Assembly (NCBI GenBank): GCA_902783555.1
Contig: CACZRB010000056.1
Span: 1 to 33,016 of the forward strand
Direction: 5' to 3'
DNA: 33,016 nucleotides
From: an uncultured Erysipelotrichaceae bacterium
Lineage (GTDB): Bacteria; Bacillota_I; Bacilli_A; RF39; UBA660
This document shows positions 1,026 to 13,806 of this stretch, piece by piece; the first letter of the stretch is position 1, and every line of letters starts with the position of its first letter. The notes under the pieces were generated by a model, which saw nothing but the letters and a program-made list of their open reading frames with translations, was not told where the DNA came from and made no database searches. Both the position numbers and the translations under genes were made by a program.

Positions 1026-1562
1026 TTATGAAAAATACTTAATTATTGCTTTAGTAATAGTTTTAACCAAGTTTTTTTGATATTCATCAGTAGATAATTT
1101 TTCTCTATCACTTACATTAGATAAAAAACCACATTCAATTAAAACACCTGATACATTAAGTTTATTATACATATAAGTACCTGTTATTATTTTAATTTTA
1201 CGATTTGATTTAGTAAATTTATTTAATTCTTCTTGCACAACTTTAGCAATATTTTCATTATCATTTATTTTAGGGTAATAAAATACTTGTGGCCCATAAT
1301 ATTTTTCATTACTATATATATTTTGATGAATAGATAAATACATATCTGCATGTGAATTATTAATAAGCTTAATTCTATTATCAAAATCACTTTTCTTACG
1401 ATATAAAGCATTTGGATTACTTAAATCATTAATATCTTTTCTTGTTAATAAAACATTAGCACCTTTCTTCTCTAATTCAGTTTTTAACTTAAATGTAATT
1501 TCTAAGTTAATCTCACTTTCATTAATATTTCTTATACTAGCTCCAAAATCTTTTCCTCCATG
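1026..1562 (-). pseudogene. N-acetylmuramoyl-L-alanine amidase (CwlD-like), 3' part split by element
   Basis: C-terminal about 178 codons of an Amidase_3 enzyme, which cleaves the bond between MurNAc and the stem peptide in peptidoglycan. The open frame starts at the integration junction with HGGKDFGAS, then shows the conserved zinc-ligand Glu region (NESEINLEI), LLTR, SIHQN (the second zinc His) and the catalytic Glu stretch (GVLIECGFLSN). Across the junction the frame runs 11 codons into element DNA and stops at TAG 1593-1595. The missing N-terminus is at 13680-13806; joined through CTCCATG the two give a protein of about 220 residues, the usual CwlD size. An internal ATG at 1343 could start a 105-residue product, but it would lack the first zinc ligand. 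Confidence 0.9.
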
Positions 1563-1587
1563 CCAAGGGTACTGATTGACAAGGTAA
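1556..1587. other. Left attachment site (att, recombinase side)
   Basis: Core CTCCATG (1556-1562) followed by an arm with GTAC (1569-1572) and ACAAGGTAA (1579-1587). Joined to the right arm it forms a near-symmetrical site of about 52 bp centred on the dinucleotide TG (1561-1562), the layout expected for a serine-integrase attP. The left flank is amidase coding DNA, i.e. half of attB. Confidence 0.85.
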
Positions 1588-3192
1588 CTAGTCTAAATTA
1601 ATAATATTCAAATGAATATCAATATCTCTGGTATTTAAATGATCGACCTTACCAACTTTGATAACATCAACAAATTCATCTACAATATCTTTTGATAATT
1701 TGTCTATATGCCTATATTTTTCAAAAACTGATTCGCTTATATTTATATGTTCTTCTTTGTCTTTTATGTTTTTGAGTTCATCTTCTATTATTGTTAATCT
1801 CTTTTTATATTCTTCAACTTCTTTAGAAAATTTAGTTCGAAACATAACAAATTCTTCTTGTGTAATAATTCCCTCTAATTTATCTTCATACAATTTTTTA
1901 TAATAATCATTTTTTCTTGCAATTTTTTCATTTAGACTTTCTTTTTCTTCATCATAACTTTTTACTTTGTTTATTGTTTCATCATCTAGAGCTGCTTTTT
2001 GCAATTTATAGTTTCTTTCTAATTCATTAAGATTATAGTAATTATCTAATTGCTTATTTATCTCATCTAAAATGTATTTTTCTATAATATCACATCTAAT
2101 TGATTCTTTATTAATACAATCCCTACTAGCAAGTATTCTACTTTTACATTTTAAATATGGAGTTTTACCATCTTTTGTAGTATAAAGCTGTCTAGTAAAT
2201 ACAGCACCGCACTCTTTACAATAAACTTTACAACTTAACATATATATTTCTCCAGTTGTTTTAAGAGGTTTTGTTCTTTTACTTTTTTTCTCTTGAACAC
2301 GGCGCCATGTTTCTATATCAATAATTGCTTCATGAGTTCCATAAGAATAAGTCCACTGTTCTTTTGGTTTTGATATTACTTTATGATTTTTATAACTCAC
2401 ATAAGTACTCTTTCCTTGTATAAGATTTCCAATATATACCTCATTTTGTAATATTTTTGCGATAGTATCTTGCGACCACTTTGTTTTTTCTTTATATTTT
2501 GCCTTTTTGCAAACAAATTTACTACCATTTTCTTTCTTATAATTTGTTGGAGTAGGTATCCCTTTATTATTTAAATTAGTAGCTATTTTGTGATATCCTA
2601 GTCCTGAAAGATATAATGCATAAATCTCTTTTACAACCTCAGCAGCGACAAGATCTATTATTAGTTTATTCTTATCATTAGGATCTTTCATATATCCATA
2701 TGGAGCAAAACTTCCCAAAAATAAACCATCTTCTCTTTTATTTTGTAAAGAATCTCTAATATCACGAGATAAATCTTCTAAATACCACTCGTTTATTAAG
2801 CCATTTATTTGTCTTGCTTTTTTATTTTCTCTTACATTTGTATCAGCATTATCAACGATACTAATAAAACGAACTCTCCACTCAATAAATTTATCATGAA
2901 GATATTTCTCAATAATTTCCATGTCTCTTGAAAATCTCGCTTGAGTTTTACATAACACTATATTAATTAAACCATTTTCACAATCTTGAATCAATTTATT
3001 AAACTGTGGTCTATTTCTATCTGCTCCAGACCAATCATCATCACTATAAATACCTACAACATTCCAATTTCTATTTAATGCATATTTTAATAACATACTT
3101 TTTTGATTTGCTATTGAATCACTATCATCGGATTTATCTCTTTTGTATCTATCTTCATCAGATAATCTAACATAAATACCAACATTATACAT
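1588..3192 (-). CDS. Large serine recombinase (TndX/TnpX-like integrase)
   Basis: A 534-residue site-specific serine recombinase that would integrate and excise the element. The resolvase domain spans about residues 1-150, with nucleophile Ser11 in YVRLSDED, the SIANQK segment and the active-site arginines of ARFSRD and DLSRD. A Recombinase domain follows (about 160-300; GYMKD, GIPTP, ILQNEVYIG), then a zinc ribbon with Cys325-x2-Cys328 and Cys349/Cys359, and a long coiled coil (about 385-480), all typical of large serine recombinases. AGGAGG lies eight bases before the ATG. The stop codon is within about 35 bases of the crossover site, the normal position for these integrases. The gene looks intact. 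Confidence 0.96.
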   Translation of the reverse strand: MYNVGIYVRLSDEDRYKRDKSDDSDSIANQKSMLLKYALNRNWNVVGIYSDDDWSGADRNRPQFNKLIQDCENGLINIVLCKTQARFSRDMEIIEKYLHDKFIEWRVRFISIVDNADTNVRENKKARQINGLINEWYLEDLSRDIRDSLQNKREDGLFLGSFAPYGYMKDPNDKNKLIIDLVAAEVVKEIYALYLSGLGYHKIATNLNNKGIPTPTNYKKENGSKFVCKKAKYKEKTKWSQDTIAKILQNEVYIGNLIQGKSTYVSYKNHKVISKPKEQWTYSYGTHEAIIDIETWRRVQEKKSKRTKPLKTTGEIYMLSCKVYCKECGAVFTRQLYTTKDGKTPYLKCKSRILASRDCINKESIRCDIIEKYILDEINKQLDNYYNLNELERNYKLQKAALDDETINKVKSYDEEKESLNEKIARKNDYYKKLYEDKLEGIITQEEFVMFRTKFSKEVEEYKKRLTIIEDELKNIKDKEEHINISESVFEKYRHIDKLSKDIVDEFVDVIKVGKVDHLNTRDIDIHLNIINLD

Positions 3193-3269
3193 ATAAGATA
3201 CCTCCTAACTGTAAACATATTACATCTTTAATAAAGATATCCCAACTGTGCAAATTTTTTATTTGTAGA

Positions 3270-3410
3270 TCAATTATTTGCATTATTAGTTTTTTCTTTT
3301 TTAATTATGATTTTGGCTAATTTTTGATTAAATATTTTTATAATATCTTCTTTATCTTTACAAGCTATATTTAAATAAGTCTTAACATTATATTTTATTT
3401 CTGAATTCAT
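3270..3410 (-). CDS. Small 46-aa protein, translationally coupled upstream of the recombinase
   Basis: A 46-codon ORF starting MNSEIKYNVKTYL and ending in a lysine- and asparagine-rich tail. Its ATG overlaps the TGA of the preceding gene as ATGA, which suggests translational coupling, and it ends 77 bases before the recombinase start. Small ORFs at this place in serine-recombinase elements are sometimes directionality factors or accessory proteins, but nothing in this sequence shows that. I do not recognise a family. Confidence 0.5.
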   Translation of the reverse strand: MNSEIKYNVKTYLNIACKDKEDIIKIFNQKLAKIIIKKEKTNNANN

Positions 3411-3706
3411 TTATGTTCTCCATTATAAAAATTATGTGGAGACTTATTAGAATATTCTTTTTTAGTTTTATTTATTTTACATTTTACTTCTTCTAATTGC
3501 TCACTATAAAGAATATCTATAAAACATTTAATGCTTGAATTATCTATATAAAGAGTATTTGTTAGATTTAATATAGAATTTGGTCGTATTTTTTTAAATT
3601 GCTTAACTTTAACATGATTTGATTTTGTTCTTCCTTTATATGAAACAGTTATTATTGGAATAACTTCAACCATTTCTTTATCATTGTTTAATACTAATAC
3701 TGGCAT
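3407..3706 (-). CDS. MazF/PemK-like protein, possibly truncated
   Basis: A 99-residue protein whose N-terminus (MPVLVLNND, then VEVIPIITVSYKGR and NHVKV) resembles the second strand block of the MazF/PemK endoribonuclease toxin fold, where families show RPVLVISND and IPITS. The usual first block with the G-D-I-Y/W motif is missing. The frame is open upstream only as far as a TGA about 33 bases before this ATG, and no good ribosome binding site is visible. It may therefore be a 5'-truncated toxin gene or a divergent relative. It lies between a truncated sigma-like gene and the 46-aa ORF in the recombination end of the element. The call is by motif only. Confidence 0.45.
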   Translation of the reverse strand: MPVLVLNNDKEMVEVIPIITVSYKGRTKSNHVKVKQFKKIRPNSILNLTNTLYIDNSSIKCFIDILYSEQLEEVKCKINKTKKEYSNKSPHNFYNGEHK

Positions 3707-3729
3707 AATTCTTTGATTATTGTCATTAC

Positions 3730-3897
3730 TTATAACTCAAACTTATCAAGTGCTTGATAAACAACTTCTGATATTTCAATTTTGTGAATAACTTTTAAGT
3801 TATCAACAAATTCTACTGTATAAGTATTTTTAATTTCATTAAATCCCAATATATATGGATTGTCTTTACTCTTATTTCTTTTTGGTATATTTACCAT
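3730..3897 (-). pseudogene. Sigma-70-like mobile-element regulator, N-terminal remnant
   Basis: A 55-residue ORF with the opening of a sigma-factor-like protein often found beside recombinases in Firmicute elements: IPKRNKSKDNPY, then a strand-rich stretch and a end at ALDKFEL. In relatives as I remember them the chain continues with a segment like EDISQ and a C-terminal helix-turn-helix region of roughly 100 more residues; here a TAA stops it. The start at 3897 is chosen because TAGGAGA lies seven bases upstream; a longer start at 3930 has no such site. If the assignment is right, this is a truncated regulator without its DNA-binding half. Confidence 0.55.
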
Positions 3898-3964
3898 TTT
3901 TTCTCCTATCAACTCGAAATAAAAATTCAATTTGATAGTTAAGATGGTAATCTACATTTTCTAA

Positions 3965-4093
3965 TTAAAGTTTTAAGGCAAACAAAAAAGAGCAGATATT
4001 TATACTTTCAAAAGCATAAGTATCTGCTCTTTTTACATAAGCGTTTTTTGGGGCAAGAAAAAGCATATAAGTAAATATGTTTTTTCTCATCAT
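3965..4093 (-). CDS. Possible 42-aa leader peptide overlapping a hairpin
   Basis: An ORF beginning MMRKNIFTYMLFLAPKNAY with GAGAGG seven bases before its first ATG. It runs straight through the strong terminator hairpin at 3985-4034, so a translating ribosome would cover the stem. That layout resembles attenuation leaders ahead of resistance or regulatory genes. The next genes downstream are the truncated sigma-like gene and the recombinase. The sequence is less AT-rich than its surroundings. It could be a chance ORF, or the scar of a lost gene. Confidence 0.3.
   Translation of the reverse strand: MMRKNIFTYMLFLAPKNAYVKRADTYAFESINICSFLFALKL
3985..4034 (-). terminator. Strong bidirectional hairpin (terminator or attenuator)
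   Basis: GAGCAGATA (3990-3998) pairs with TATCTGCTC (4021-4029); further pairing (ATACTTT with AAAGCAT) extends the stem, and A- and T-runs flank it on both sides. It can stop transcripts on either strand. It separates the recombination genes from the ABC transporter cargo. Confidence 0.85.
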
Positions 4094-4368
4094 TAGTCAG
4101 CCTCTCTCATATGAGCAAAGACCTTTTTATACGACAATTATGAAACATATAAAAAGTAACTAAATAATAAAGCAATTCTAATAGAATACAATACTACTTA
4201 ACTACAAAATTCTATTTATTTGCATTTTACTATTATAGCCATCCCAATGCTATTTTTTATAAATATTACAAATTTCGACATAGAAAACTCAAACAATAAT
4301 CTTAAATTCGAAATAATTATTGTTTAGTTAGTATTAATAATATTTTAAAAAATATAGAAGCATAAACA
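4035..4368. other. Intergenic stretch between cargo and recombination genes
   Basis: About 330 bases. The left end holds the start of the possible leader ORF and its ribosome binding site (about 4093-4110). A TATAAT-like box on the minus strand lies near 4232-4237 but has no convincing -35 partner. No other gene is seen. Confidence 0.5.
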
Positions 4369-5679
4369 CTATTTATTAAAAATTGGGAAAATTAAAGAGA
4401 ACACTAAAATAACAATTAGTATATAAACTAAAATGGAGAAGTAATCAAATATAAAAATTGATAGTATTCCAAGAATATAGCAACCAAAGATTGTTTTACT
4501 TTCATTTAATGAATAATTTATGGTTAATAATAAAAGTATTAAATATACAATTAAATCATATATTACAATTTTAGAAAAAGCAATGTAATTATATAATGGC
4601 AGTCTTAATATTATAATAATAAATATAAATGATATTATTTTCTTAATAATCCATATTTTTTTTGATATTCTTGTAAAAATAATACATGCGTTTTTCTTTA
4701 AATCTAAAAAGATAATTTTATTTAATATATAAATAATGCAAGATACAGAAATACATTTAGTTGCAAAACTAATTATTGATAATGATGCATAATTTGCACT
4801 ACATAAAATGTCATAATCATTTAACTCAATATCTTGACTATTTAAATATAATATGTTTATTATGTTTATTACTAAGTATAATAATAATGGTAAGTATATT
4901 TTTTTTATTATATTTATAATTTTATATATAATTAATTTTACATTTTTAAAAAATAAATTCCAATTAAATATACTAATTATTTTAGACAAGAATAATATAA
5001 AATAATACTTTGCAATATATGATATTATAAAATATGATATTTCATTTATTAAACTTCCATAATTTTTAAATAATAAAAATGATGGAAAGGAAACATAATC
5101 AACATTTGCCACAGGAATTAGTAAAAATCCATATATTAAAAATATTATAAAATTTAATGCATTTTTCTTTTTATAATTAAAGGATACATATGTTACAAAA
5201 TAAATAATAAAAAATATGAATATATAATTTCTTATTAATTCCCATATAATATATGAATATGTAGATATATTATATATAAAAAATATTTCGTTATTAATTA
5301 TAAATAAATGTTTAAAAATTCTAAATACAATTAAAGAAATTATATTAATAATATATATTAATGACATTAAACAAACTACATTATTAAAAATAAACTTTAG
5401 AAAACTTTCCTTATTAGAAAACCTAGTGATTAATTCTACACGATTTTTAAGGTTATTTATTAATTGCAATATGAAATATAGAATTATAGAAATCAACAAT
5501 ACCAAATAATAATTATTGCTTAGGTCAAAAGCAAGGTTATAAGAAAAGCCATACTTTTTTACTGTATTCATAATGCAATATAAATTTATAGCTAATATTG
5601 ATAAAATTAAATAAACAATATTTTGCTTTTTTAATATATTTTTTATAATGTAAAAATTATATTTAATCCTTTTTTTCAT
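4369..5679 (-). CDS. Polytopic membrane protein of the cargo ABC transporter
   Basis: A 436-residue protein made almost entirely of hydrophobic helices (about 11-12 predicted by eye), rich in Ile, Asn, Tyr and Lys with few charged loops. It is the last gene of the set 7570 to 4369. Its ATG lies inside the end of the ATPase gene (17-base overlap), so it is probably translationally coupled and acts as a membrane partner of that ATPase. I recognise no conserved domain. Asymmetric ABC systems with two unlike permeases are known for export of, or self-protection from, secreted peptides; that role is inference from context. Base composition is even more AT-rich than the neighbours. Confidence 0.75.
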   Translation of the reverse strand: MKKRIKYNFYIIKNILKKQNIVYLILSILAINLYCIMNTVKKYGFSYNLAFDLSNNYYLVLLISIILYFILQLINNLKNRVELITRFSNKESFLKFIFNNVVCLMSLIYIINIISLIVFRIFKHLFIINNEIFFIYNISTYSYIIWELIRNYIFIFFIIYFVTYVSFNYKKKNALNFIIFLIYGFLLIPVANVDYVSFPSFLLFKNYGSLINEISYFIISYIAKYYFILFLSKIISIFNWNLFFKNVKLIIYKIINIIKKIYLPLLLYLVINIINILYLNSQDIELNDYDILCSANYASLSIISFATKCISVSCIIYILNKIIFLDLKKNACIIFTRISKKIWIIKKIISFIFIIIILRLPLYNYIAFSKIVIYDLIVYLILLLLTINYSLNESKTIFGCYILGILSIFIFDYFSILVYILIVILVFSLIFPIFNK

Positions 5680-6301
5680 ATTTTAAATTACCACTATCTA
5701 ATTTATATAACTCATCAATTAAATTATCTATATCTTCTTTTATATGTGTAGCAATTATTATTATTTTATTATTTTTTAGTTTTTTTATTAAATCTCTCAT
5801 ATCATTAGCAGATTTATCATCTAACCCATTAAATGGTTCGTCTAATATTATCAAGTCCGAATCTTCCATTAAAACTTGGGCAATTCCTAATTTTTGCTTC
5901 ATTCCTAAAGAATAATCTTTGTATTTTTTGTTTTCTTCACCCTTTAGTCCAACTAATTCTAAAGTTTTTAATATTTTATTATCATCAATAACTTGCTGAA
6001 TAGAGGCTATTAATTTTAAATTATCAAAGCCAGATAATTCATTAATCATTTCGGGATTTTCAATTAAAGCTCTTGTTGATTTAGGAACCCCAAATTTCTT
6101 TATATAATTTTCGTTATCAAAAAGGACTTCACCTTTATCTGCATTGAGAATTCCACATATTATTTTTAATAAAACTGTTTTACCAGATCCATTTCTACCT
6201 ATTATTCCATATATTTTATTAGGTTTAAATTCAATATTTATATTATTAAGAATTGTTTGATTTTTAAAAGACTTAGATACATTATTTATTCTAACATTCA
6301 T
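5663..6301 (-). CDS. ABC transporter ATP-binding protein
   Basis: A 212-residue ATPase subunit that powers the two adjacent membrane proteins. Walker A is GRNGSGKT (about residues 36-43), the ABC signature is YSLGMKQKLGIAQ, Walker B is LIILDEPFNGLD, and the switch histidine is in IIATHIKED. The short length and LGMKQKLGIAQ-type signature fit the ABC-2/bacitracin-export class. It starts five bases after the upstream permease gene ends and overlaps the downstream one. The substrate is unknown; the secreted 132-aa protein encoded first in the same run is the obvious candidate for the protein exported or resisted. Confidence 0.95.
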   Translation of the reverse strand: MNVRINNVSKSFKNQTILNNINIEFKPNKIYGIIGRNGSGKTVLLKIICGILNADKGEVLFDNENYIKKFGVPKSTRALIENPEMINELSGFDNLKLIASIQQVIDDNKILKTLELVGLKGEENKKYKDYSLGMKQKLGIAQVLMEDSDLIILDEPFNGLDDKSANDMRDLIKKLKNNKIIIIATHIKEDIDNLIDELYKLDSGNLKYEKKD

Positions 6302-6306
6302 AATAT

Positions 6307-7146
6307 TTATACTCCCATTCTATTTAATATTTTTTCTTTATTTTTATAACTTAATAATAATATTATAAAGCTTATAATAAAATAAATTAAAGATGATAAT
6401 AAGTAATTATATATTGATATATTTGATAGATTATATATTCCAAATAACCAATAATTATATGGTAAGTTTTCAAGTATCATTTCTAAAAGAAAATAAACAA
6501 TTATAAATTCTACTATATTAAATATGAATTTTCTATTTTTACTTTGAATAATTAATGCTATGTTAATAAATGACAACCATATAAGCATAATATTTAAACC
6601 ATATAATACAATAAAAAATTTAGTATTGTAATGTATTTTTTCAAATGTTGCTATACGCATTATTTCAGTTAAAGAATTAGGTCCATGCGATGAAATAGAC
6701 AAAGAAAGTAAATAGGAAAAAGCAATTATAAATGGGACAATTAATACATATTTATACGAATTTATAATTACAGATTTTATTAAATCATAATATTTTTTTC
6801 TTTGAACATAATAATAGGTGTATTTTGATTTCATGATCCTATTTAATGTATAAGTTGAAAACACTAGTAGTAATATAGGTGCAAATAATGGTAAATTATA
6901 TAATATTTCGGATTGCATAATACTATAAAAAATCGTTAGATTATCAGGTGTACTAGGCAAATTGCTTACATCAATATTTTTACAATAATCCTCCATTTTA
7001 CTATCACTATTATAGGCACAAATACTACTAAATTCCTCTATTAGATTATTATCATTAACTGTTTTTTTGACTTCTAAATACGATAATAATACCATTATAA
7101 AAAATATAATAAATAATAATATTAAGCCTTTTTTACTTTCTTTCAT
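6307..7146 (-). CDS. ABC transporter permease-like membrane protein
   Basis: A 279-residue protein with one N-terminal membrane helix (about 9-26), an external loop of about 60 residues holding two cysteines (SSICAYNSD and EDYCKN), then about five more helices. This is an ABC-2 permease-like layout. AGGAGG stands nine bases before the ATG. It lies 25 bases after the secreted 132-aa gene and five bases before the ATPase gene, so the four genes very probably form one transcript. The call rests on topology and position, since no strong family motif is visible. Confidence 0.75.
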   Translation of the reverse strand: MKESKKGLILLFIIFFIMVLLSYLEVKKTVNDNNLIEEFSSICAYNSDSKMEDYCKNIDVSNLPSTPDNLTIFYSIMQSEILYNLPLFAPILLLVFSTYTLNRIMKSKYTYYYVQRKKYYDLIKSVIINSYKYVLIVPFIIAFSYLLSLSISSHGPNSLTEIMRIATFEKIHYNTKFFIVLYGLNIMLIWLSFINIALIIQSKNRKFIFNIVEFIIVYFLLEMILENLPYNYWLFGIYNLSNISIYNYLLSSLIYFIISFIILLLSYKNKEKILNRMGV

Positions 7147-7171
7147 AATCTATTTCCTCCTATATTAATTA

Positions 7172-7570
7172 TTAAATTGAATATTGCCAGTTAGAGCAAG
7201 AGTAATATGTATAAATAGACAAAAATGCATTTTTTATTTGAATTTTATAATTGCCAGTATTACTATAAGCTCCAGAATATGTATGGTCGTCGCCTGTTCC
7301 AAGTTCTACCCATTGACTATATGAATCATAATCAACATTATATAATCTGGCTTTTATATTAGTGTAATCACCATTATGATTACTAATAGTCCCAATATGA
7401 TAAACCTTTTGATTCGTACTATAATCTTTTGAAACCTGGCTAGACGTATAAGAACCACCAAGTTTAGGAATATCTACAGTTATTGAATATACTTGAGAAC
7501 TAGCAAAAACACCTGTTGTTATTATTCCCATACATAATACCAATGCAAACAATAGAATTCTATTTTTCAT
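7172..7570 (-). CDS. Secreted 132-aa protein, bacteriocin-like, first gene of the ABC operon
   Basis: A small exported protein. A signal peptide (MKNRILLFALVLCMG..., cleavage expected after GVFA near residue 23) is followed by about 108 residues rich in Tyr, Ser, Asn and Thr with alternating polar and hydrophobic residues, which suggests a beta-sandwich. A good site (AAAGGAG) precedes the ATG. It heads the run that continues with two membrane proteins and an ABC ATPase, the arrangement seen for secreted bacteriocins with dedicated pumps (for example the lactococcin 972 group, also beta-rich and signal-peptide-exported). I do not see the lactococcin 972 sequence motifs, so the antimicrobial role is inference. 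The shared promoter/operator motif lies about 90 bases upstream. Confidence 0.75.
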   Translation of the reverse strand: MKNRILLFALVLCMGIITTGVFASSQVYSITVDIPKLGGSYTSSQVSKDYSTNQKVYHIGTISNHNGDYTNIKARLYNVDYDSYSQWVELGTGDDHTYSGAYSNTGNYKIQIKNAFLSIYTYYSCSNWQYSI

Positions 7571-7653
7571 ACAATCTCCTTTCTAGAAAGCTCTGATTAT
7601 TTTTGCTTTCATCAAAAGATTAATAAATATTTTAAATATTTTAAATGCATAAT

Positions 7654-7673
7654 TTAGCGAATAATGTCGCTTA
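7654..7673 (-). promoter_or_regulatory. Shared cargo operator/promoter motif, copy 1
   Basis: On the plus strand AGCGAATAATGTCGCT; on the minus strand GCGACA, 15 bases, then TGC and an AT-rich -10-like region. It lies about 90 bases before the start of the secreted 132-aa gene. It matches the copies near 9214, 10127 and 11397. Confidence 0.65.
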
Positions 7674-7690
7674 TATAACGCAATTTATTT

Positions 7691-7957
7691 TTAGTTACAA
7701 AATTTATAACAATCTATTAGTATTTTATTAATTTCAAATAATTGTACAGGTTTGTTTTTGTCGCAAGAAATATTGGTAATTTCACGAATTTCATTAGTTG
7801 CTAAATATAATAAATATTTATGATTAATAGATACCAATCGCTTTATTTCAGCAATAAAATCTAAATCATTTTTATAATATGTATAAAACTGAGAATCCCA
7901 CTTTTTATAATAGTATAATAATTCCAAGATAATATCATTTGTTTTGTTTTTTTTCAT
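7691..7957 (-). CDS. Unknown 88-aa protein
   Basis: An 88-residue, probably cytoplasmic, mostly helical protein (MKKNKTNDIILELLYYYKKWD...). The start at 7957 is chosen because AAGGAG stands eight bases upstream; an in-frame upstream extension to 8020 has no such signal. It is divergent from the XRE-family gene at 8100, so the 142-base gap between them probably holds both promoters. I recognise no family. A TA-like or repressor/partner pair is possible but not shown. Confidence 0.6.
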   Translation of the reverse strand: MKKNKTNDIILELLYYYKKWDSQFYTYYKNDLDFIAEIKRLVSINHKYLLYLATNEIREITNISCDKNKPVQLFEINKILIDCYKFCN

Positions 7958-8099
7958 TTTAATTCTCCTTATCTTTTTTATTATTTTAAATATTACACAT
8001 AATAGAAAAAAACGCAACACTTTTCTTTAACATTTGTGCAAAAGACATTTATATTACAGTTGTATAAAATATATAAAAGTTATTGTTTAGGAGATTATT

Positions 8100-8375
8100 A
8101 TGAATAGTAAGGAAATATTATCAATTAATTGGAAATTTTATCGTAAAATTTATAATTTATCTCAAGAAAAATTTGCTGAAATTATTGGAAGTAATATTGT
8201 ATACATAAATCAGTTAGAAAATTGTAAAAGAAAGCCAACTATCGATATGTTGGACAAAATTGCAAATAACTTAAATATTTTTGATGCTTCATTAAATATT
8301 ACTGCAAGTGACTTAATAAAATTTGATGCAAAGCATATTACAAATTTTAGAAGAATTGATGAAAAAACAAAATAA
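8100..8375 (+). CDS. Small XRE-family DNA-binding regulator
   Basis: A 91-residue protein with a classical lambda-repressor-like helix-turn-helix at about residues 11-62: YRKIYNLSQEKFAEIIGS, then IVYINQLENCKRKPTIDMLDKIANNLN. The tail of about 30 residues is short and has no sensor domain. AGGAG is placed seven bases before the ATG. It is one of only two intact cargo genes on the plus strand side of the element's regulation and is transcribed away from the 88-aa gene. It probably represses its own divergent promoter region; the target is not visible. Confidence 0.85.
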   Translation: MNSKEILSINWKFYRKIYNLSQEKFAEIIGSNIVYINQLENCKRKPTIDMLDKIANNLNIFDASLNITASDLIKFDAKHITNFRRIDEKTK

Positions 8376-8401
8376 ATATAGTGAAATACTTATTTTTTTA
8401 A

Positions 8402-9151
8402 TTACCAACTACCTGACCATGTTGCAGTAGCAGTTGACATAGTATCAAAATAACTGGAAACTGAACTTTCATGTACTATCCCATTTGTTCCAATAGTATG
8501 CTTTTTAGCATTTGTTAAACTTATTGTACTTGTAGCATGTGCGTAATCACCAAATGCTTTTTGAGTCAATATAGTTGCATTGACATTCTTTTCTACATTA
8601 AAATATAATTTTGCACTTAACGAACTAATGCTTCCTGTAGGAAGTTGGAATGTAGCAGTTGTCCCTGTAGAAGAAGTATATATAGATGCAGATGAAGAAG
8701 TTTGATTATCGTAAGTTAATAAGAAGTTGGCATTGCCACTTAATTTAACACTTTGATAATGGCCAATTCCTATAATATCATAACTTCTAGTGGCTGGCAT
8801 TAATTTCCAATTTAATACAACTTGATACTTATATTTTGATCCATTTGCAGATATTGATGTAGTCATTTTTTTATATGTGGTTTCAGTGTACCCATTTCCT
8901 CTTAACAGAATATTATCTAATGTAGGTATTACAGAATTATACTCATCTTCAGATATTTCTTGAGTATAACTATAATTATTCTCAAGTGGATTATATACTA
9001 TAGAATTAGTATCACTAAAACCATAATTATATGTTATTGTCTTATAATATTTTGTTTCAGTAACAATATCTTCATTATTACTATTATCTGCAAAAACCAA
9101 ACATGGAAATATGGAAATAATTCCTCCAATAATAAATAATAACTTTTTCAA
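8402..9151 (-). CDS. Secreted protein A, paralogue of the protein at 10367-11320
   Basis: A 249-residue protein starting at TTG with a signal peptide (KKLLFIIGGIISIFPCLVFA, cleavage near residue 22). An N-terminal region of about 70 residues (possible propeptide) is followed by a beta-rich domain with MPATRSYDIIGIG near residue 118, HATSTISLTNAKK, and GTNGIVHESSVSSYFDTM near the end. The same signatures in the same order occur in the secreted protein at 10367-11320 (NPSTRSVDVLAI, HATTGVLLSTSK, GGVLVYNPSSYANYYDGM), so the two are homologous. AAAGGAG precedes the start by about 11 bases. The shared motif lies about 85 bases upstream. Function unknown; a secreted effector or antimicrobial is a guess from context. 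Confidence 0.75.
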   Translation of the reverse strand: MKKLLFIIGGIISIFPCLVFADNSNNEDIVTETKYYKTITYNYGFSDTNSIVYNPLENNYSYTQEISEDEYNSVIPTLDNILLRGNGYTETTYKKMTTSISANGSKYKYQVVLNWKLMPATRSYDIIGIGHYQSVKLSGNANFLLTYDNQTSSSASIYTSSTGTTATFQLPTGSISSLSAKLYFNVEKNVNATILTQKAFGDYAHATSTISLTNAKKHTIGTNGIVHESSVSSYFDTMSTATATWSGSW

Positions 9152-9213
9152 ATTTGCTTTTTCTCCTTTCTGTTTTAAGATTACTATAAAAGTTATAATA
9201 ATATAAGCACTTA

Positions 9214-9256
9214 TAAATAGATATTAGTCGCTTATTTAGCGACTAATATCTATTTA
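9214..9256 (-). promoter_or_regulatory. Perfect 19-bp inverted repeat; shared operator motif, copy 2
   Basis: Arms of 19 bases (9214-9232 and 9238-9256) pair without a mismatch around a five-base loop. The inner part is GTCGCT-tattt-AGCGAC, the same words as in the other three copies. On the minus strand GCGACT is followed after 16 bases by TGC and a TATATT-like box, about 85 bases before secreted protein A. It also contains the stop codon of the upstream regulator gene, so it may serve as terminator and operator at once. Confidence 0.7.
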
Positions 9257-9968
9257 AAGGCATTTCTATAATTATCTCTTGTTGATTATCATAATATTTT
9301 AAAACTAACTTAACATTTAAATCTTCGTTACAATTACGACTATTTTTATAAGAAAAACTTATATTATCTAATAAATCACTAATTATTACATTTTCATCAT
9401 TATCAATTCCTTTTTCTTCAATAAATTCATCATTTAAATATAATAATAAAGATATTTCTTTACTTTTTATTTCTTTATCAGTTCCAATGTATATATCATT
9501 ATAATTTATATCATCAATTAAAATCATTATATTATATGAATTATATATTAATGTTCCCAATATATCAAATCTATCATCACTGGATTTTAAAGAATAAATT
9601 TTATATTCATTTTTAGTTTTATAATTATAAAAAATTAAAAAAACTGATAGAATTGTAATAATAATAGTTATAAAAATAATTGTTATTTTATATTTATATT
9701 TATTATTATAATATTTTATTGTTGTAATAGTAGAAGAATTATTATCTTTATTATTATCTTCTATTTTACCATGCAAAATATCATTAACTGTTACTCCAAG
9801 ACTTTCTGCCAAAATATCTAAAACTGATATATCTGGGGCATAAACACCAGTTTCCCATTTTGATATTGTTCGTCTATCAACATTTATTAACTTTCCAAGT
9901 TGTTCTTGAGTCAAGTTTTTTTCTTTTCTTTTTTCAGCAATAAAACTCCCTATTTTGTTTAAATCCAT
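9243..9968 (-). CDS. Membrane-anchored XRE-family regulator
   Basis: A 241-residue one-component regulator. Residues about 5-62 form a helix-turn-helix (IAEKRKEKNLTQEQLGKLI, then RRTISKWETGVYAPDISVLDILAESLG). A linker follows, then one membrane helix at about 92-112 (ITIIFITIIITILSVFLIFY) and an outer domain of about 125 residues, strand-rich and acidic. DNA binding inside and a domain outside suggest direct coupling of an external signal to transcription. Its own upstream region carries copy 3 of the shared motif, and copy 2 follows it, so it is the leading candidate to bind that motif and to regulate itself and the secreted genes. Regulation is inference. Confidence 0.85.
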   Translation of the reverse strand: MDLNKIGSFIAEKRKEKNLTQEQLGKLINVDRRTISKWETGVYAPDISVLDILAESLGVTVNDILHGKIEDNNKDNNSSTITTIKYYNNKYKYKITIIFITIIITILSVFLIFYNYKTKNEYKIYSLKSSDDRFDILGTLIYNSYNIMILIDDINYNDIYIGTDKEIKSKEISLLLYLNDEFIEEKGIDNDENVIISDLLDNISFSYKNSRNCNEDLNVKLVLKYYDNQQEIIIEMPLNRY

Positions 9969-10126
9969 ACTACATCACCTGCTTGATATTATATAATATT
10001 CATTTATATAATAAAATAAATAATCAATAAAATCTATTAAAAAAATGTGAAACCAATTCACATAAGCAAATTATTTAATATAATAGTAAAATATAATTTC
10101 TATTACTCCCAAAATCTACATGCAAA

Positions 10127-10167
10127 AAGCGAATAATTTTGTCGCTAAATGCTAAATTTATTCGCTT
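10127..10167 (-). promoter_or_regulatory. Shared cargo operator/promoter motif, copy 3
   Basis: AAGCGAATAA (10127-10136) and TTATTCGCTT (10158-10167) are perfect inverted arms, with GTCGCT between them. On the minus strand GCGACA is followed after 15 bases by TGC and a -10-like region. It is about 165 bases before the membrane-anchored XRE gene, the only gene it can drive. Confidence 0.6.
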
Positions 10168-10193
10168 AAAAATTAATAATTTAATAATATATA

Positions 10194-10349
10194 CTAATAC
10201 CTTTCTTGAAGTGCTGTTGGAATATAAGAAATATCAGTAATATAGCTTATGTTAGTTCCTCCTGTTGCGTTTACAAGACCAACTGCAATAGCTCCACCAT
10301 CTACATCAAGTCTTGGTATAAAGACTGGGCTACTACTATCAGTAATACA
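10194..10349 (-). pseudogene. 3' remnant of a trypsin-like (S1 fold) secreted protease
   Basis: An open frame of 51 codons ending in TAG at 10194. It begins CITDSSSPVFIP and continues with GGAIAVGLVNATGG. This matches the C-terminal part of chymotrypsin-fold proteases, where the nucleophile motif GDSGGPVF is followed by a GxAVGLxSGG strand pair; here the motif reads TDSSSPVF. The frame is closed upstream by TGA within about 30 bases and has no start codon with a ribosome binding site. The rest of the gene is missing. It follows the stop of secreted protein B by about 20 bases in another frame, so part of an older gene was probably deleted here. Confidence 0.45.
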
Positions 10350-10366
10350 ATTAAAATAAATGATTT

Positions 10367-11320
10367 TTAACAATCAATATGACAGCCTGTTGCTACTGTA
10401 TCCTTTACTCCGGCCATGCCATCATAATAATTTGCATATGAACTAGGATTATAAACTAATACTCCACCAAGACCGTTACCAAAAGAATATGATTTTGATG
10501 TTGATAACAATACACCTGTTGTTGCGTGTTGATATGTAGCATAAACATACTCTCCAACGTATTGATCAAATTCTACATACATAGACATATCAAATTGTGA
10601 ACCAGTATCAAATAAATTCATTGACTCTCCGATTCCATAAGTTGTTCTTTTCATATTATTTCCGTCTAAACCGTAGCCTTGTTCATGTAAGCTATTAGAT
10701 TGCGTTGCATAATACCCAACCACATTATTTAATGGCTTAGATGTAGTCCAACGTATAGCTAAAACATCTACAGATCTAGTTGATGGGTTTGAATACCAAT
10801 GTACATCTACTAAAGCTAAGTAATTTGTATTTGTAGGATCATATGCAGATTCGCTATAAGATAATGTAATGCGTTTACTAGTTGTTGTATGCTGCCAAAT
10901 TGGTTCGCTTCTTAATCCATAACTAATAATTTCTTTAGAGGTGTCATGAAGTTTTCCATCAGAAAGAACATGTAAACTTTTATTATTAGCAACTGCTAAT
11001 GCTTCCTCTTCAGTAGCTGGTATAGTTATTGTACTTATAATATTTCCTAGATTATCTTTTACATCAGTAGTTATTGAATATGCTCTTTCTATGTTTATTT
11101 CATTTTGTTCATTGCTTAAATAATTTATTTGTGCTTGTGGTAAAATATTTATAGTAGTATCTGTAAATTTATCCGAAAGAACTTCATATTGTTCTGCAGT
11201 AATAGTTGCACCTTTTTTATTTATAAAGTCGCCATTATCATTTAAAGTAAGTGCATTTACTGATTTCATACTAAATAATGTAGTAATAGCAATACCTAAT
11301 ACAATTATTGTTTTTTTCAT
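10367..11320 (-). CDS. Secreted protein B, larger paralogue of secreted protein A
   Basis: A 317-residue exported protein. The start at 11320 is chosen because AAAGGATG lies just upstream and the signal peptide (KKTIIVLGIAITTLFSMKS, cleavage after VNA near residue 24) begins there; the longer frame from 11344 would spoil it. An acidic N-terminal region of about 110 residues looks like a propeptide. The C-terminal beta-rich domain has the motifs shared with secreted protein A: VHWYSNPSTRSVDVLAI, YQHATTGVLLS, GGVLVYNPSSYANYYDGM. The end has a Cys pair (GCHIDC). The shared motif is about 85 bases upstream. The function is unknown to me. Confidence 0.75.
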   Translation of the reverse strand: MKKTIIVLGIAITTLFSMKSVNALTLNDNGDFINKKGATITAEQYEVLSDKFTDTTINILPQAQINYLSNEQNEINIERAYSITTDVKDNLGNIISTITIPATEEEALAVANNKSLHVLSDGKLHDTSKEIISYGLRSEPIWQHTTTSKRITLSYSESAYDPTNTNYLALVDVHWYSNPSTRSVDVLAIRWTTSKPLNNVVGYYATQSNSLHEQGYGLDGNNMKRTTYGIGESMNLFDTGSQFDMSMYVEFDQYVGEYVYATYQHATTGVLLSTSKSYSFGNGLGGVLVYNPSSYANYYDGMAGVKDTVATGCHIDC

Positions 11321-11396
11321 ATTCTCATCCTTTCTAAGAAACATAATAATTTCTAATTAAAGAATATCATAAAAACAATTAATTATATGTAGCATA

Positions 11397-11416
11397 TTAA
11401 GCGAAATTTGTCGTTA
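11397..11416 (-). promoter_or_regulatory. Shared cargo operator/promoter motif, copy 4
   Basis: On the plus strand AAGCGAAATTTGTCGTT; on the minus strand ACGACA, 14 bases, then TGC followed closely by TATAAT. It stands about 85 bases before the start of secreted protein B. One arm has T in place of C compared with copy 1. Confidence 0.65.
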
Positions 11417-11436
11417 AAAGATAGCAACAAGCAAAT

Positions 11437-12225
11437 TTAATATGAAAGAGAGTTTAAAAAATCTTCTAAAATTGGTCTTCGATTATCTGGATTATCTACA
11501 ATAATAATGTTAATTCTATAAGCAATATTATCATAAACGAAAAGTATATCATAATACCCATTTCTTCTCATTTCAGTATTAAGAGTTAAAATATAACTAT
11601 CCGTTTTTAAATTTTCAATATAATAATTTTCATTTTTTAATGAATCACTAGATTTCCAGCCCACGTAAACGTCATTAGGATAAAATTTTGTTGCAAATGA
11701 GATATGCATATCAATTTTTTTAATCTTGTCATCTAAAACACCATTTACAATAAAGTGGGCAGAGGCTATTTTACCATTTTCTTTTGTTAATGAATATATT
11801 TTTATTTTGTCTGTTTTAAGAATTTTGCTTTTTAGTATTTTGGTATTTAACATTTCTTCTATTTCTGAAATTAAATAATCTTTACTATTTTCTCCTTTTT
11901 GAGGATCAATTTCAGGAAGATTAGCATCATAATTAATTACTTTTCTAAAATCTTCAGATTTTGCTTCAATAGTTTTTCTACCTTCTTTATTTACTGTAGT
12001 AGTTATTTTAATATTATTAATAAATTCTTTGATTTCATCTGCATAAACTATACTAATACTTAAAATAAATACTAAAAATATTGATGATATATATTTAAAA
12101 GTTTTTTTTCTTTTTTGATAAGCTGTATATTTATTTTGTATTTTTTGGCTTATTATTTTACTTTCATCTTCTGAAATATCTATTTTACTAAATTCCTCTT
12201 TGTAATAATCATTTATATTTCTCAT
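11437..12225 (-). CDS. Probable membrane-bound anti-sigma factor
   Basis: A 262-residue protein with a cytoplasmic N-terminus of about 42 residues, one membrane helix at about 43-62 (YISSIFLVFILSISIVYA) and an outer domain of about 200 residues. This is the topology of anti-sigma proteins paired with ECF sigma factors in Firmicutes (DUF4179-like group). Its ATG overlaps the TAA of the sigma gene by one base (TAATG), and GGAGGAG lies within the end of that gene. The cytoplasmic stretch would hold the sigma factor and the outer domain would sense an external signal. No zinc-finger HxxxCxxC motif is seen, so it is not of the ZAS class. Confidence 0.75.
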   Translation of the reverse strand: MRNINDYYKEEFSKIDISEDESKIISQKIQNKYTAYQKRKKTFKYISSIFLVFILSISIVYADEIKEFINNIKITTTVNKEGRKTIEAKSEDFRKVINYDANLPEIDPQKGENSKDYLISEIEEMLNTKILKSKILKTDKIKIYSLTKENGKIASAHFIVNGVLDDKIKKIDMHISFATKFYPNDVYVGWKSSDSLKNENYYIENLKTDSYILTLNTEMRRNGYYDILFVYDNIAYRINIIIVDNPDNRRPILEDFLNSLSY

Positions 12226-12686
12226 TAATTCTCCTCCATTTCTTTTTTTAAAATTTCTCTACCTCTAGATAGTCTCATTTTAATAGAAGATTCAGACTTA
12301 TGCATAATTTTAGCAATTTCTTTTACATTATATCCTTCGTAGTAATGTAAAAATAAGGGAACTCGATAATTCAAAGGTATACTTTTTAAAAAGTAAATTA
12401 AATCATTTTTTGTGTAATCTTCATTATTTATAATATTTTCTTCATTTACAAAACTTAATGTTTTAAATTTAAAAGTTCGTAATAAATCTTTGCAATCATT
12501 TATAGTGATTCTAAAAAGCCATTTTTTTATGTCATTACTTGAATTATTTACTTTTTTAATATTTTTATATAGTTTTAGAAACGATTTTTGCATTATATCC
12601 TCAGCATCTTGTTTATTTAGAACATAACTATATGCTAATCTATAAACATCTTTATAATAAGTCTTATATATTTGCTCAAATTCCAC
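12225..12686 (-). CDS. ECF-type sigma-70 family RNA polymerase sigma factor
   Basis: A 153-residue sigma factor with only regions 2 and 4. Region 2 is about residues 3-70 (YKTYYKDVYRLAYSY, DAEDIMQKSFLKLY, WLFRITINDC) and binds the core enzyme and the -10 element. Region 4 is about 100-150 (IPLNYRVPLFLHYYEGYN, KEIAKIMHKSESSIKMRLSRG) and binds the -35 element. The start is GTG at 12686, with AGAGGTG about 11 bases upstream. It is directly followed by its probable anti-sigma factor. A possible -10 TATTAT lies near 12755. The shared cargo motif is not found upstream of this gene, so simple autoregulation through that motif is not supported. Confidence 0.92.
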   Translation of the reverse strand: MEFEQIYKTYYKDVYRLAYSYVLNKQDAEDIMQKSFLKLYKNIKKVNNSSNDIKKWLFRITINDCKDLLRTFKFKTLSFVNEENIINNEDYTKNDLIYFLKSIPLNYRVPLFLHYYEGYNVKEIAKIMHKSESSIKMRLSRGREILKKEMEEN

Positions 12687-12937
12687 TAAAATTATTCACC
12701 TCTTTCTACTATTATTAAATAATTCTTATTTACCTTTCTATTTTTTAATAACTCCTTTCATTATAATAACGAATGAAACAATTAAAAAGTCACATTTTTA
12801 TTTATTATATCAGAAATTAAATCTTAACAATTTAAAAAATAATTGAATAGAATAGATAATGCTCATTTAATAGGCTAAATAATGTTACATTATCTGATAA
12901 TTTTTTGTAAATAAAACTAAGATAATACATATCTTAG

Positions 12938-13375
12938 CTAAATTTGCCTATTATTTTGGGAATTACTAAATATTAGGTCATTATATTCTTTTTTTATAAT
13001 TCCTTTAGTTTTTTCGTATATTTCATTTTTATAAATAATTCTTTCATCATAATATTCACAATAATTATTAAGTTCATAAAAAATATCTTCCACTTTTTTA
13101 TCATCAATTTTATACATTACATAGTTTAAATAGCATTCATAAGCTAACATACTTGCATAAGAATCTATAATTACTTTTTTACGATATAAGTCATCATCTA
13201 AAGCATTTTTTATCAATTCAACTACTTCTTTATAATCATTATCATTTAAAACAATTACATCTTTAATATGATCTAAATTATAGTATTCTTTTTCAATATA
13301 GCCAGATACTCCTAGGTCAAATAATCGCTTTTGTACTTTAATTAAATAGTTTTCTTCGAATATAAAAATAGTACA
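12938..13375 (-). pseudogene. Unknown gene fragment without a start codon
   Basis: An open frame of about 145 codons closed on the 5' side by TAA at 13376-13378. The only start-like codon is a TTG at 13216, without a clear ribosome binding site, and sensible-looking sequence continues upstream of it (FEENYLIKVQKRLFDLGVSG). The protein is helical, acidic and rich in Tyr (LAYECYLNYVMYKIDDKK). I recognise no family. A 5'-truncated gene near the element's right end is the simplest reading; translation of 92 residues from the TTG is possible. Confidence 0.45.
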
Positions 13376-13378
13376 TTA

Positions 13379-13619
13379 TATTAATTTTTGTACTACGATA
13401 AATCAATTTTCCAAATCTTAATCAACCGATATCGGTGCATATTATTGATTAATTTTTGCTTTCTTTTTGTTTTTCTTGTTTTCTTCTTTTTTCATAAATT
13501 TTTTTCCTTTCTTTTTCTATATATTTTTACTTTATTTATTTTTTTTGTCTAAAGTAAAAGACAAATGGTAATAATTCCTATTGCTATATTCTACATTTAT
13601 ATCACCCCTTTCAAGCAAT
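13379..13619. other. Right-end intergenic region of the element
   Basis: A stretch of about 240 bases without a recognised gene. It holds an inverted repeat at 13418-13452, and a 17-codon Lys-rich ORF at 13442-13495 (minus) with AAAGGA upstream that is too short to trust. On the minus strand a very good ribosome binding site (AAAGGGGTGAT) is followed by ATG and immediately by TAG (13591-13596). Confidence 0.4.
13418..13452. repeat. Nested inverted repeat with 12-bp palindrome
   Basis: The outer arms TTAATCAA (13418-13425) and TTGATTAA (13445-13452) enclose most of the perfect palindrome ACCGATATCGGT (13425-13436). It is GC-richer than its surroundings and could be a protein binding site in the right end of the element. 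Confidence 0.45.
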
Positions 13620-13652
13620 AAAAAAAGACCTAATCCATTGATTGAAGTCTTA
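13620..13652 (-). terminator. Terminator inside the right end of the element
   Basis: On the minus strand AAGAC..GTCTT (13625-13629 with 13647-13651) with inner pairing AATC/GATT, followed by a run of T. It would stop transcripts that enter the element from the amidase promoter. Confidence 0.65.
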
Positions 13653-13659
13653 TATTTAT

Positions 13660-13686
13660 TTACCTTGTTAAACCGTACTCTCCATG
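13660..13686. other. Right attachment site
   Basis: TTACCTTGT (13660-13668), six bases, GTAC (13675-13678), then core CTCCATG (13680-13686). It mirrors the left site arm for arm. The flank beyond 13686 is the 5' part of the amidase gene. Confidence 0.85.
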
Positions 13687-13806
13687 ACCAGCATCTATAA
13701 TAATAGTTTTACCAATTAGTGGAAATATACTATCACATGCATTAACCTTAAATATTGAAAATAGCGTTATTAAAATTATTAACAATAAAATAGAAATTCT
13801 TTTCAT
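13680..13806 (-). pseudogene. N-acetylmuramoyl-L-alanine amidase, 5' part split by element
   Basis: N-terminal 42 codons of the split amidase. After a start-like region comes a hydrophobic signal segment (ISILLLIILITLFSIFKVNA), then GKTIIIDAGHG, whose His is the first zinc ligand of Amidase_3 enzymes. Beyond the core the frame enters the element (EYGLTR) and stops at TAA 13660-13662. The only nearby ATG (13805-13807) is followed by five A, which puts it one base out of frame with the amidase. With four A the protein would start MKRISILLL, a normal signal peptide. So this part either has a one-base insertion or is misread here. The hydrolase gene to its right ends in a terminator, so the amidase had its own promoter. 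Confidence 0.85.

What the first reader, a model, noticed from the sequence alone, without database searches (positions are those of the whole stretch)
1556..1587. Rebuilt attP is an almost symmetrical site of about 52 bp
Joining the element ends gives TTACCTTGT, six bases, GTAC, the core, GTAC, six bases, ACAAGGTAA, with the centre of symmetry exactly on the TG dinucleotide of the core (1561-1562 and 13685-13686). Non-palindromic TG is what a serine integrase needs for direction. This defines the integrase, its attB and attP from sequence alone.
Basis: partly seen in the sequence, partly recalled or inferred. Interest (0 to 1): 0.6.

Follow-up and report, generated by a model that had tools for sequence, protein, structure and literature searches.

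The report
Integrase element splitting a spore gene
A 12-kb mobile DNA element has inserted itself, by a textbook site-specific integrase reaction, into the exact codon for a zinc-binding histidine of a predicted spore-wall enzyme gene in an uncultured bacterium, and other elements hit the very same codon in many sister genera, so the gene may be switched back on whenever the element leaves.

Summary
Joining the element ends gives a 52-bp attP, TTACCTTGT-6-GTAC-6-TG-6-GTAC-6-ACAAGGTAA, 18/25 symmetric about TG (next-best centre 11; shuffled arms 7.0 +/- 2.2). The adjacent ORF (1588-3192, -) is a large serine recombinase; its stop codon abuts the attP arm. The joined flanks restore a complete 218-aa Amidase_3 protein closest to the sporulation amidase CwlD, cut at the His codon of DAGHGG. 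Comparison independently supports the crossover: in same-genus G002 another element sits in the same codon, the two halves share only CA (=TG), and its rebuilt attP is again symmetric about it. The same codon is broken in 18 genomes of 16 genera; integrases 53-55% identical use it in cwlD and in a second amidase gene. The host genome carries Spo0A and SpoIVA, so this is a candidate sporulation-gene intervening element (like skin, SPbeta, gin, yin) in a target, cwlD, for which I found no report. Developmental excision is plausible but untested; no excised circle was found.

The parts
1563..13686 (.). inserted element, 12,124 bp between the two crossover points (one copy of TG counted)
   Evidence: joined flanks restore an intact gene; intact in relatives G001, G003, G010 and others
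1556..1562 (+). shared core CTCCATG, left copy; crossover TG at 1561-1562
   Evidence: crossover pinned by G002
13680..13686 (+). shared core CTCCATG, right copy; crossover TG at 13685-13686
1563..1587 (+). attP arm next to the integrase: CCAAGG GTAC TGATTG ACAAGGTAA
   Evidence: abuts the integrase stop codon at 1588-1590
13660..13684 (+). attP arm at the far end: TTACCTTGT TAAACC GTAC TCTCCA
1588..3192 (-). large serine integrase, 534 aa (Resolvase, Recombinase, zinc beta-ribbon domains)
1026..1562 (-). C-terminal part of the interrupted CwlD-like amidase, from the His codon of DAGHGG to the stop
13687..13806 (-). N-terminal part of the interrupted CwlD-like amidase, MKRIS...IIIDAG
3407..3706 (-). 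element ORF, weak PemK/MazF-like match (below cut-off)
5663..6301 (-). cargo: ABC transporter ATPase, best NCBIfam match lantibiotic-protection type (below cut-off)
12225..12686 (-). cargo: ECF-type sigma factor

Best explanation
The 52-bp sequence is the attP of a 12.1-kb integrative element whose large serine integrase (1588-3192, -) inserted it into a CwlD-like N-acetylmuramoyl-L-alanine amidase gene. An integrase dimer binds each site; the recombinase domain probably reads the GTAC boxes and the zinc ribbon the outer TTACCTTGT boxes; strands are exchanged at the 2-bp TG (CA on the coding strand, the first two bases of the zinc-ligand His codon of DAGHGG). The TG sets the orientation of the element, while arm layout plus a directionality factor would set integration versus excision. 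Precise excision would restore an uninterrupted 218-aa amidase. Shown here: site anatomy, crossover dinucleotide by comparison, restoration of the reading frame, repeated use of the same codon by other elements, presence of Spo0A and SpoIVA in the host genome. Inferred: domain-to-box assignment, binding, activity, existence of an RDF. Speculative: that excision is timed to sporulation.
For: Symmetry centred on TG. Pfam domains of a large serine recombinase. Joined flanks give a complete Amidase_3 protein (E 5e-42), best NCBIfam model TIGR02883 spore_cwlD over its full length (185.6 bits). Same-genus G002: different ~3.6-kb element, related 711-aa integrase, same His codon; halves share only CA; attP symmetric 16/25 about CA. 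In G002 the element lies the other way round and, read from the integrase-proximal arm, its dinucleotide is TG where the window's is CA: orientation follows the dinucleotide. Type A elements, whose 46-72-bp ends are nearly identical in 7 genera, are symmetric 19/25 about CA in the three that could be rebuilt; type C (G179) 15/25. The gene is broken at this codon in 18 genomes of 16 genera; no other break cluster among the listed matches. L148-L151 (integrases 53-55% identical to the window's) sit at the same codon, in cwlD (L149) or in a second Amidase_3 gene.
Against: No excised circle (attP) or read-level evidence of activity: the window attP was absent from 59 genomes, and the type A attP from 386 genomes and from the viral collection, each tested as one pattern. 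The zinc-ribbon motif shifted 5 bp inward, expected in attB from the A118/LI model, is not visible in this attB (3 of 9 matches in each arm). For L149 the rebuilt attP is only weakly symmetric (10/25, mainly the outer TTGGGT boxes). The CwlD model score is below its equivalog cut-off. No RDF was identified.
Confidence: 0.93

Rival explanations
1. It is a sporulation-gene intervening element in the functional sense: excision is triggered during sporulation and rebuilds cwlD when it is needed, as for skin (sigK), SPbeta (spsM), gin (gerE) and yin (yabG).
For: Interrupted gene is closest to spore_cwlD; the genome has Spo0A and SpoIVA; order RF39 is predicted to sporulate by PMC10868615, though membership of the window in RF39 is my inference; the C halves of cwlD in the split genomes keep an open frame, normal length and, with a few motif variants, the catalytic motifs; spoIVA is also split in G005 and G024 and probably G033; gin likewise has an inverted repeat in its excised site and none in attB (PMC5595907).
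Against: No sporulation-type promoter was shown upstream of the integrase (only sigma-70-like sites, no more than chance, were scanned), no RDF, no data on expression or excision. Recent insertion alone would also leave intact halves. Near-identical element ends in several genera point to recent spread rather than long domestication.
Confidence: 0.35
2. An ordinary mobile or mobilizable element that merely uses the strongly conserved DNA of an amidase zinc motif as a landing site; cwlD disruption is tolerated and never repaired on purpose.
For: The L148-L151 integrases (89-100% identical to one another) use the same codon in a second, LysM-type amidase gene as well as in cwlD, so the target is the motif DNA, not one gene; L148-L150 carry what reads by eye as a MobV-type relaxase; intact halves are also explained by recent insertion.
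Against: Other elements of the family split spoIVA, a spore-specific gene, at other sequences, which a common amidase motif does not explain.
Confidence: 0.5
3. The symmetry is chance or belongs to another kind of feature, and the split gene is an assembly artefact.
For: The region is AT-rich (window 23% GC), which raises chance matches.
Against: 1 in 10^4 of random arm pairs and none of 20,000 arm shuffles reach the score; independent assemblies show the same junction; no transposase was recognised in the element ORFs scanned.
Confidence: 0.01

Closest known systems
A118/LI serine integrase attP (Rutherford et al. 2013, PMC3783163)
   Same: pseudo-palindromic attP with about 25-bp half-sites and a central 2-bp crossover; recombinase domain and zinc ribbon each read part of the half-site
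   Different: box sequences differ (GTAC and TTACCTTGT); the 5-bp inward shift of the zinc-ribbon motif in attB is not detectable here
gin element in gerE of Bacillus cereus ATCC10987 (PMC5595907)
   Same: element without phage genes, with a serine recombinase, interrupting a sporulation gene; excised site carries an inverted repeat, attB is not symmetric
   Different: target gene is gerE, 28.6 kb, three recombinases, excision shown in sporulating cells; here cwlD-like gene, 12.1 kb, one recombinase, excision not shown
yin (yabG, C. botulinum; PMC10747680), skin (sigK), SPbeta (spsM), vfbin (spoVFB)
   Same: serine-recombinase element splitting a sporulation gene so that excision restores it
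   Different: different target genes; yin was reported as unique to one strain, whereas the cwlD codon is hit in at least 16 genera
TndX-type and other large serine recombinases of integrative elements
   Same: domain layout; about 31-32% identity to TndX annotated on Enterococcus plasmids
   Different: target site; closest relatives found (53-55%) are in uncultured Bacilli

Membership tests
large serine recombinase integrative element | integrase with resolvase, recombinase and zinc-ribbon domains | tested here: met
   PF00239, PF07508, PF13408 above cut-off
large serine recombinase integrative element | attP about 50 bp, pseudo-symmetric about a 2-bp crossover, next to int | tested here: met
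   52 bp, 18/25, TG; arm abuts the integrase stop codon
large serine recombinase integrative element | joined flanks give an intact, uninterrupted host locus | tested here: met
   218-aa Amidase_3 ORF; intact homologues in relatives
large serine recombinase integrative element | integrase recombines attP x attB | not testable with these tools
   needs a bench assay
large serine recombinase integrative element | zinc-ribbon motif 5 bp closer to the centre in attB (LI/A118 model) | tested here: inconclusive
   3 of 9 matches in both attB arms at that position
[quoted passage not shown]
   best model spore_cwlD over its full length but under the equivalog cut-off; Spo0A and SpoIVA in the genome
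sporulation-gene intervening element (skin/SPbeta/gin/yin) | excision and circularisation | tested here: inconclusive
   no attP-bearing contig in the genomes searched; reads not available
sporulation-gene intervening element (skin/SPbeta/gin/yin) | excision timed to sporulation, with RDF | not testable with these tools
   no expression data; RDF not identified
sporulation-gene intervening element (skin/SPbeta/gin/yin) | prophage or prophage-like content | tested here: inconclusive
   no phage structural gene among the element ORFs searched with Pfam; gin shows this feature is not required (PMC5595907)
CwlD amidase (TIGR02883) | full-length match above the curated cut-off | tested here: not met
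   185.6 bits against 221.55, positions 1-189 of 189; hence CwlD-like

The most novel reading that the evidence does not exclude
A whole family of uncultured, genetically spore-forming Bacilli uses several lineages of serine-integrase elements as switches in sporulation genes: cwlD at its zinc-ligand His codon (18 genomes, 16 genera), spoIVA at TPW|Y, a LysM-type amidase at two motifs; the elements leave during sporulation and rebuild the genes.
Probability: 0.3. Interest if true: 0.78.

Novelty: new member of a known kind. Interest (0 to 1): 0.55.

Why it matters
It gives a fully defined attP/attB/integrase set with comparative support for the crossover dinucleotide, a candidate recombination tool. 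More broadly, one codon of a predicted sporulation amidase is a repeated landing site for several element types across a bacterial family, so the open question of how common gene-splitting, excisable elements are in sporulation genes of uncultured bacteria becomes directly testable on existing metagenome reads.

Tried and rejected
Contigs that end 46-72 bp past the core first looked like a mixed integrated/excised population; the near-identical element ends in seven genera make a shared-repeat assembly break the simpler reading, so I do not use them as evidence of excision. Contigs that begin exactly at the core (G014, G196, G198) remain compatible with either. The search for rebuilt attP circles found none, and the type A end was absent from viral contigs. 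Zinc-ribbon shift in attB: not seen. Automatic search for N halves by symmetry in L148-L150 failed; only L149's N half was placed, from its tblastn match and DPGH motif. Viral, phage and plasmid collections hold only distant integrases (identity at most about 40% in the rows listed), giving no sign that this is a phage. G145 has a type A end on the N half and a different element on the C half, possibly two elements in tandem or a binning mixture; not used in the symmetry argument. A check of the G017 and G024 sites with one fixed register gave no clear symmetry (8-9 of 25), so their crossovers are not placed.

Full report
Observation. The two ends share CTCCATG (1556-1562, 13680-13686). Rebuilding attP from the right end up to 13686 and the left end from 1563 gives TTACCTTGT TAAACC GTAC TCTCCA TG CCAAGG GTAC TGATTG ACAAGGTAA, 52 bp. 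It is symmetric at 18 of 25 positions about TG; the next-best centre scores 11; random arm pairs from the window score 8.0 +/- 2.4 and 1 in 10^4 reach 18; 20,000 shuffles of one arm never do. attB, attL and attR score 7, 7 and 9. The arm on the left ends at 1587 and the integrase stop codon begins at 1588.

What is interrupted. Joining the flanks (up to 1562, then from 13687) gives a single open frame on the minus strand, 218 aa, with an N-terminal hydrophobic stretch and a complete Amidase_3 domain. The best NCBIfam model is TIGR02883 spore_cwlD, matched from its first to its last position at 185.6 bits, under the curated cut-off of 221.55; I call it CwlD-like. The crossover lies in the codon of the His in DAGHGG, a zinc ligand in this family (established knowledge). 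The Pfam profile of the ORF at 1588-3192 is that of a large serine recombinase.

Independent support for the crossover. Same-genus genome G002 has another element, about 3.6 kb, in the same codon. Its N half reads ..GCAGGG CA TGGC and its C half ..GCTGCA CA CGGT: the only contiguous bases common to both at the junction are CA, the complement of TG. Its attP is symmetric 16/25 about that CA. The G002 element lies in the opposite orientation to the window's, and its dinucleotide, read from the integrase-proximal arm, is TG where the window's is CA. This is a natural illustration of the rule that the non-palindromic dinucleotide sets insertion orientation.

A repeatedly used site. In 386 genomes of the family, 317 have a match to the joined amidase. 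Among the roughly 155 matches printed, 17 genomes start at residue 37-41 of the query; G007 makes 18 genomes of 16 genera. In 15 of these, element DNA is seen joined to the C half at CA; three contigs begin exactly at the core. Several kinds of element end are present. One (type A) is nearly identical in seven genera over the 46-72 bp available; in the three where both ends could be joined it gives an attP symmetric 19/25 about CA. Type C (G179, about 9.4 kb, N half on the same contig) gives 15/25. In GTDB contigs the closest integrases (53-55%) are in uncultured Bacilli: in L149 the element splits a cwlD-like gene next to a gene that reads like the Abi_2 gene beside the window's; in L148, L150 and L151 integrases 89-100% identical to L149's split a second amidase gene at the same HGG codon. 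So the integrase reads the DNA of the amidase motif. L149's rebuilt attP is only weakly symmetric, 10/25.

Could it be a sporulation switch? The genome itself has Spo0A and SpoIVA, and so do most of the family members searched; among the 14 control genomes only one passed the SpoIVA cut-off and only B. subtilis matched Spo0A_C. PMC10868615 predicts sporulation in order RF39; that the window belongs there is my inference from genome size, composition and relatives. The C halves in the split genomes are open, of normal length (175-182 aa after the crossover) and keep the amidase motifs apart from pattern variants that I did not examine (one each in G195, G196, G198 and L149). spoIVA is split as well: in G024 with a serine integrase immediately beside the C half, in G005 with both contigs ending at the same TPW|Y codons, and in G033 it breaks at the Walker A motif. 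Known elements of this sort interrupt sigK, spsM, spoVFB, gerE and yabG (PMC10747680, PMC5595907). My literature searches found no report for cwlD or spoIVA, within an open-access library only. Nothing here shows excision: no rebuilt attP was found, no RDF is identified, and the promoter scan is uninformative. I therefore put regulated excision at about one in three.

Mechanism and correction. Following PMC3783163, a half-site of about 25 bp is read by the recombinase domain and the zinc ribbon; by position the GTAC boxes (7-10 from the centre) fit the former and TTACCTTGT (17-25) the latter. A palindromic dinucleotide would let the element insert both ways round; it would not by itself make integration reversible.

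Verdict. The att site is real and ordinary in kind; its biology (a recurrent insertion codon in a predicted spore gene across a family) is the interesting part.

Noticed in passing
L142 (G024:C12), L143 (G024:C25), L144 and L145 (G005), L146 and L147 (G033): spoIVA is interrupted at TPW|Y in G024 (serine integrase adjacent) and G005, and broken at the Walker A motif in G033.
   Followed up: partly
L045 (G017), L038 (G022), L041 (G011), L051 (G010), L151: A LysM-type Amidase_3 gene is broken at its second zinc motif, SNHINxGG, in several genomes; in G017 both halves flank a different serine integrase. L151 appears to be hit at both motifs.
   Followed up: partly
L062:2441-4573, L118:1367-3517, L131:709-2619, L129:3289-5199: Several cwlD-site integrases are 637-717 aa long, with an N-terminal extension before the resolvase domain whose role is unknown.
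   Followed up: no
L131:4453-5511 and L129:415-1458; L137:1471-2259: Elements at the cwlD site in G179 and G361 carry a protein that by eye resembles a rolling-circle Rep (LTINNPQ, HIHLFIYSK motifs) and a sortase-like protein; not searched against a library.
   Followed up: no
window 3730-3930: A 66-aa ORF is similar to the start of a 158-aa ORF in the G361 element (L138:330-803); it may be a truncated copy.
   Followed up: no
L132 (G145:C22) and L118 (G145:C35): In G145 the N half is joined to a type A element end and the C half to a different element: tandem elements or mixed bins.
   Followed up: no
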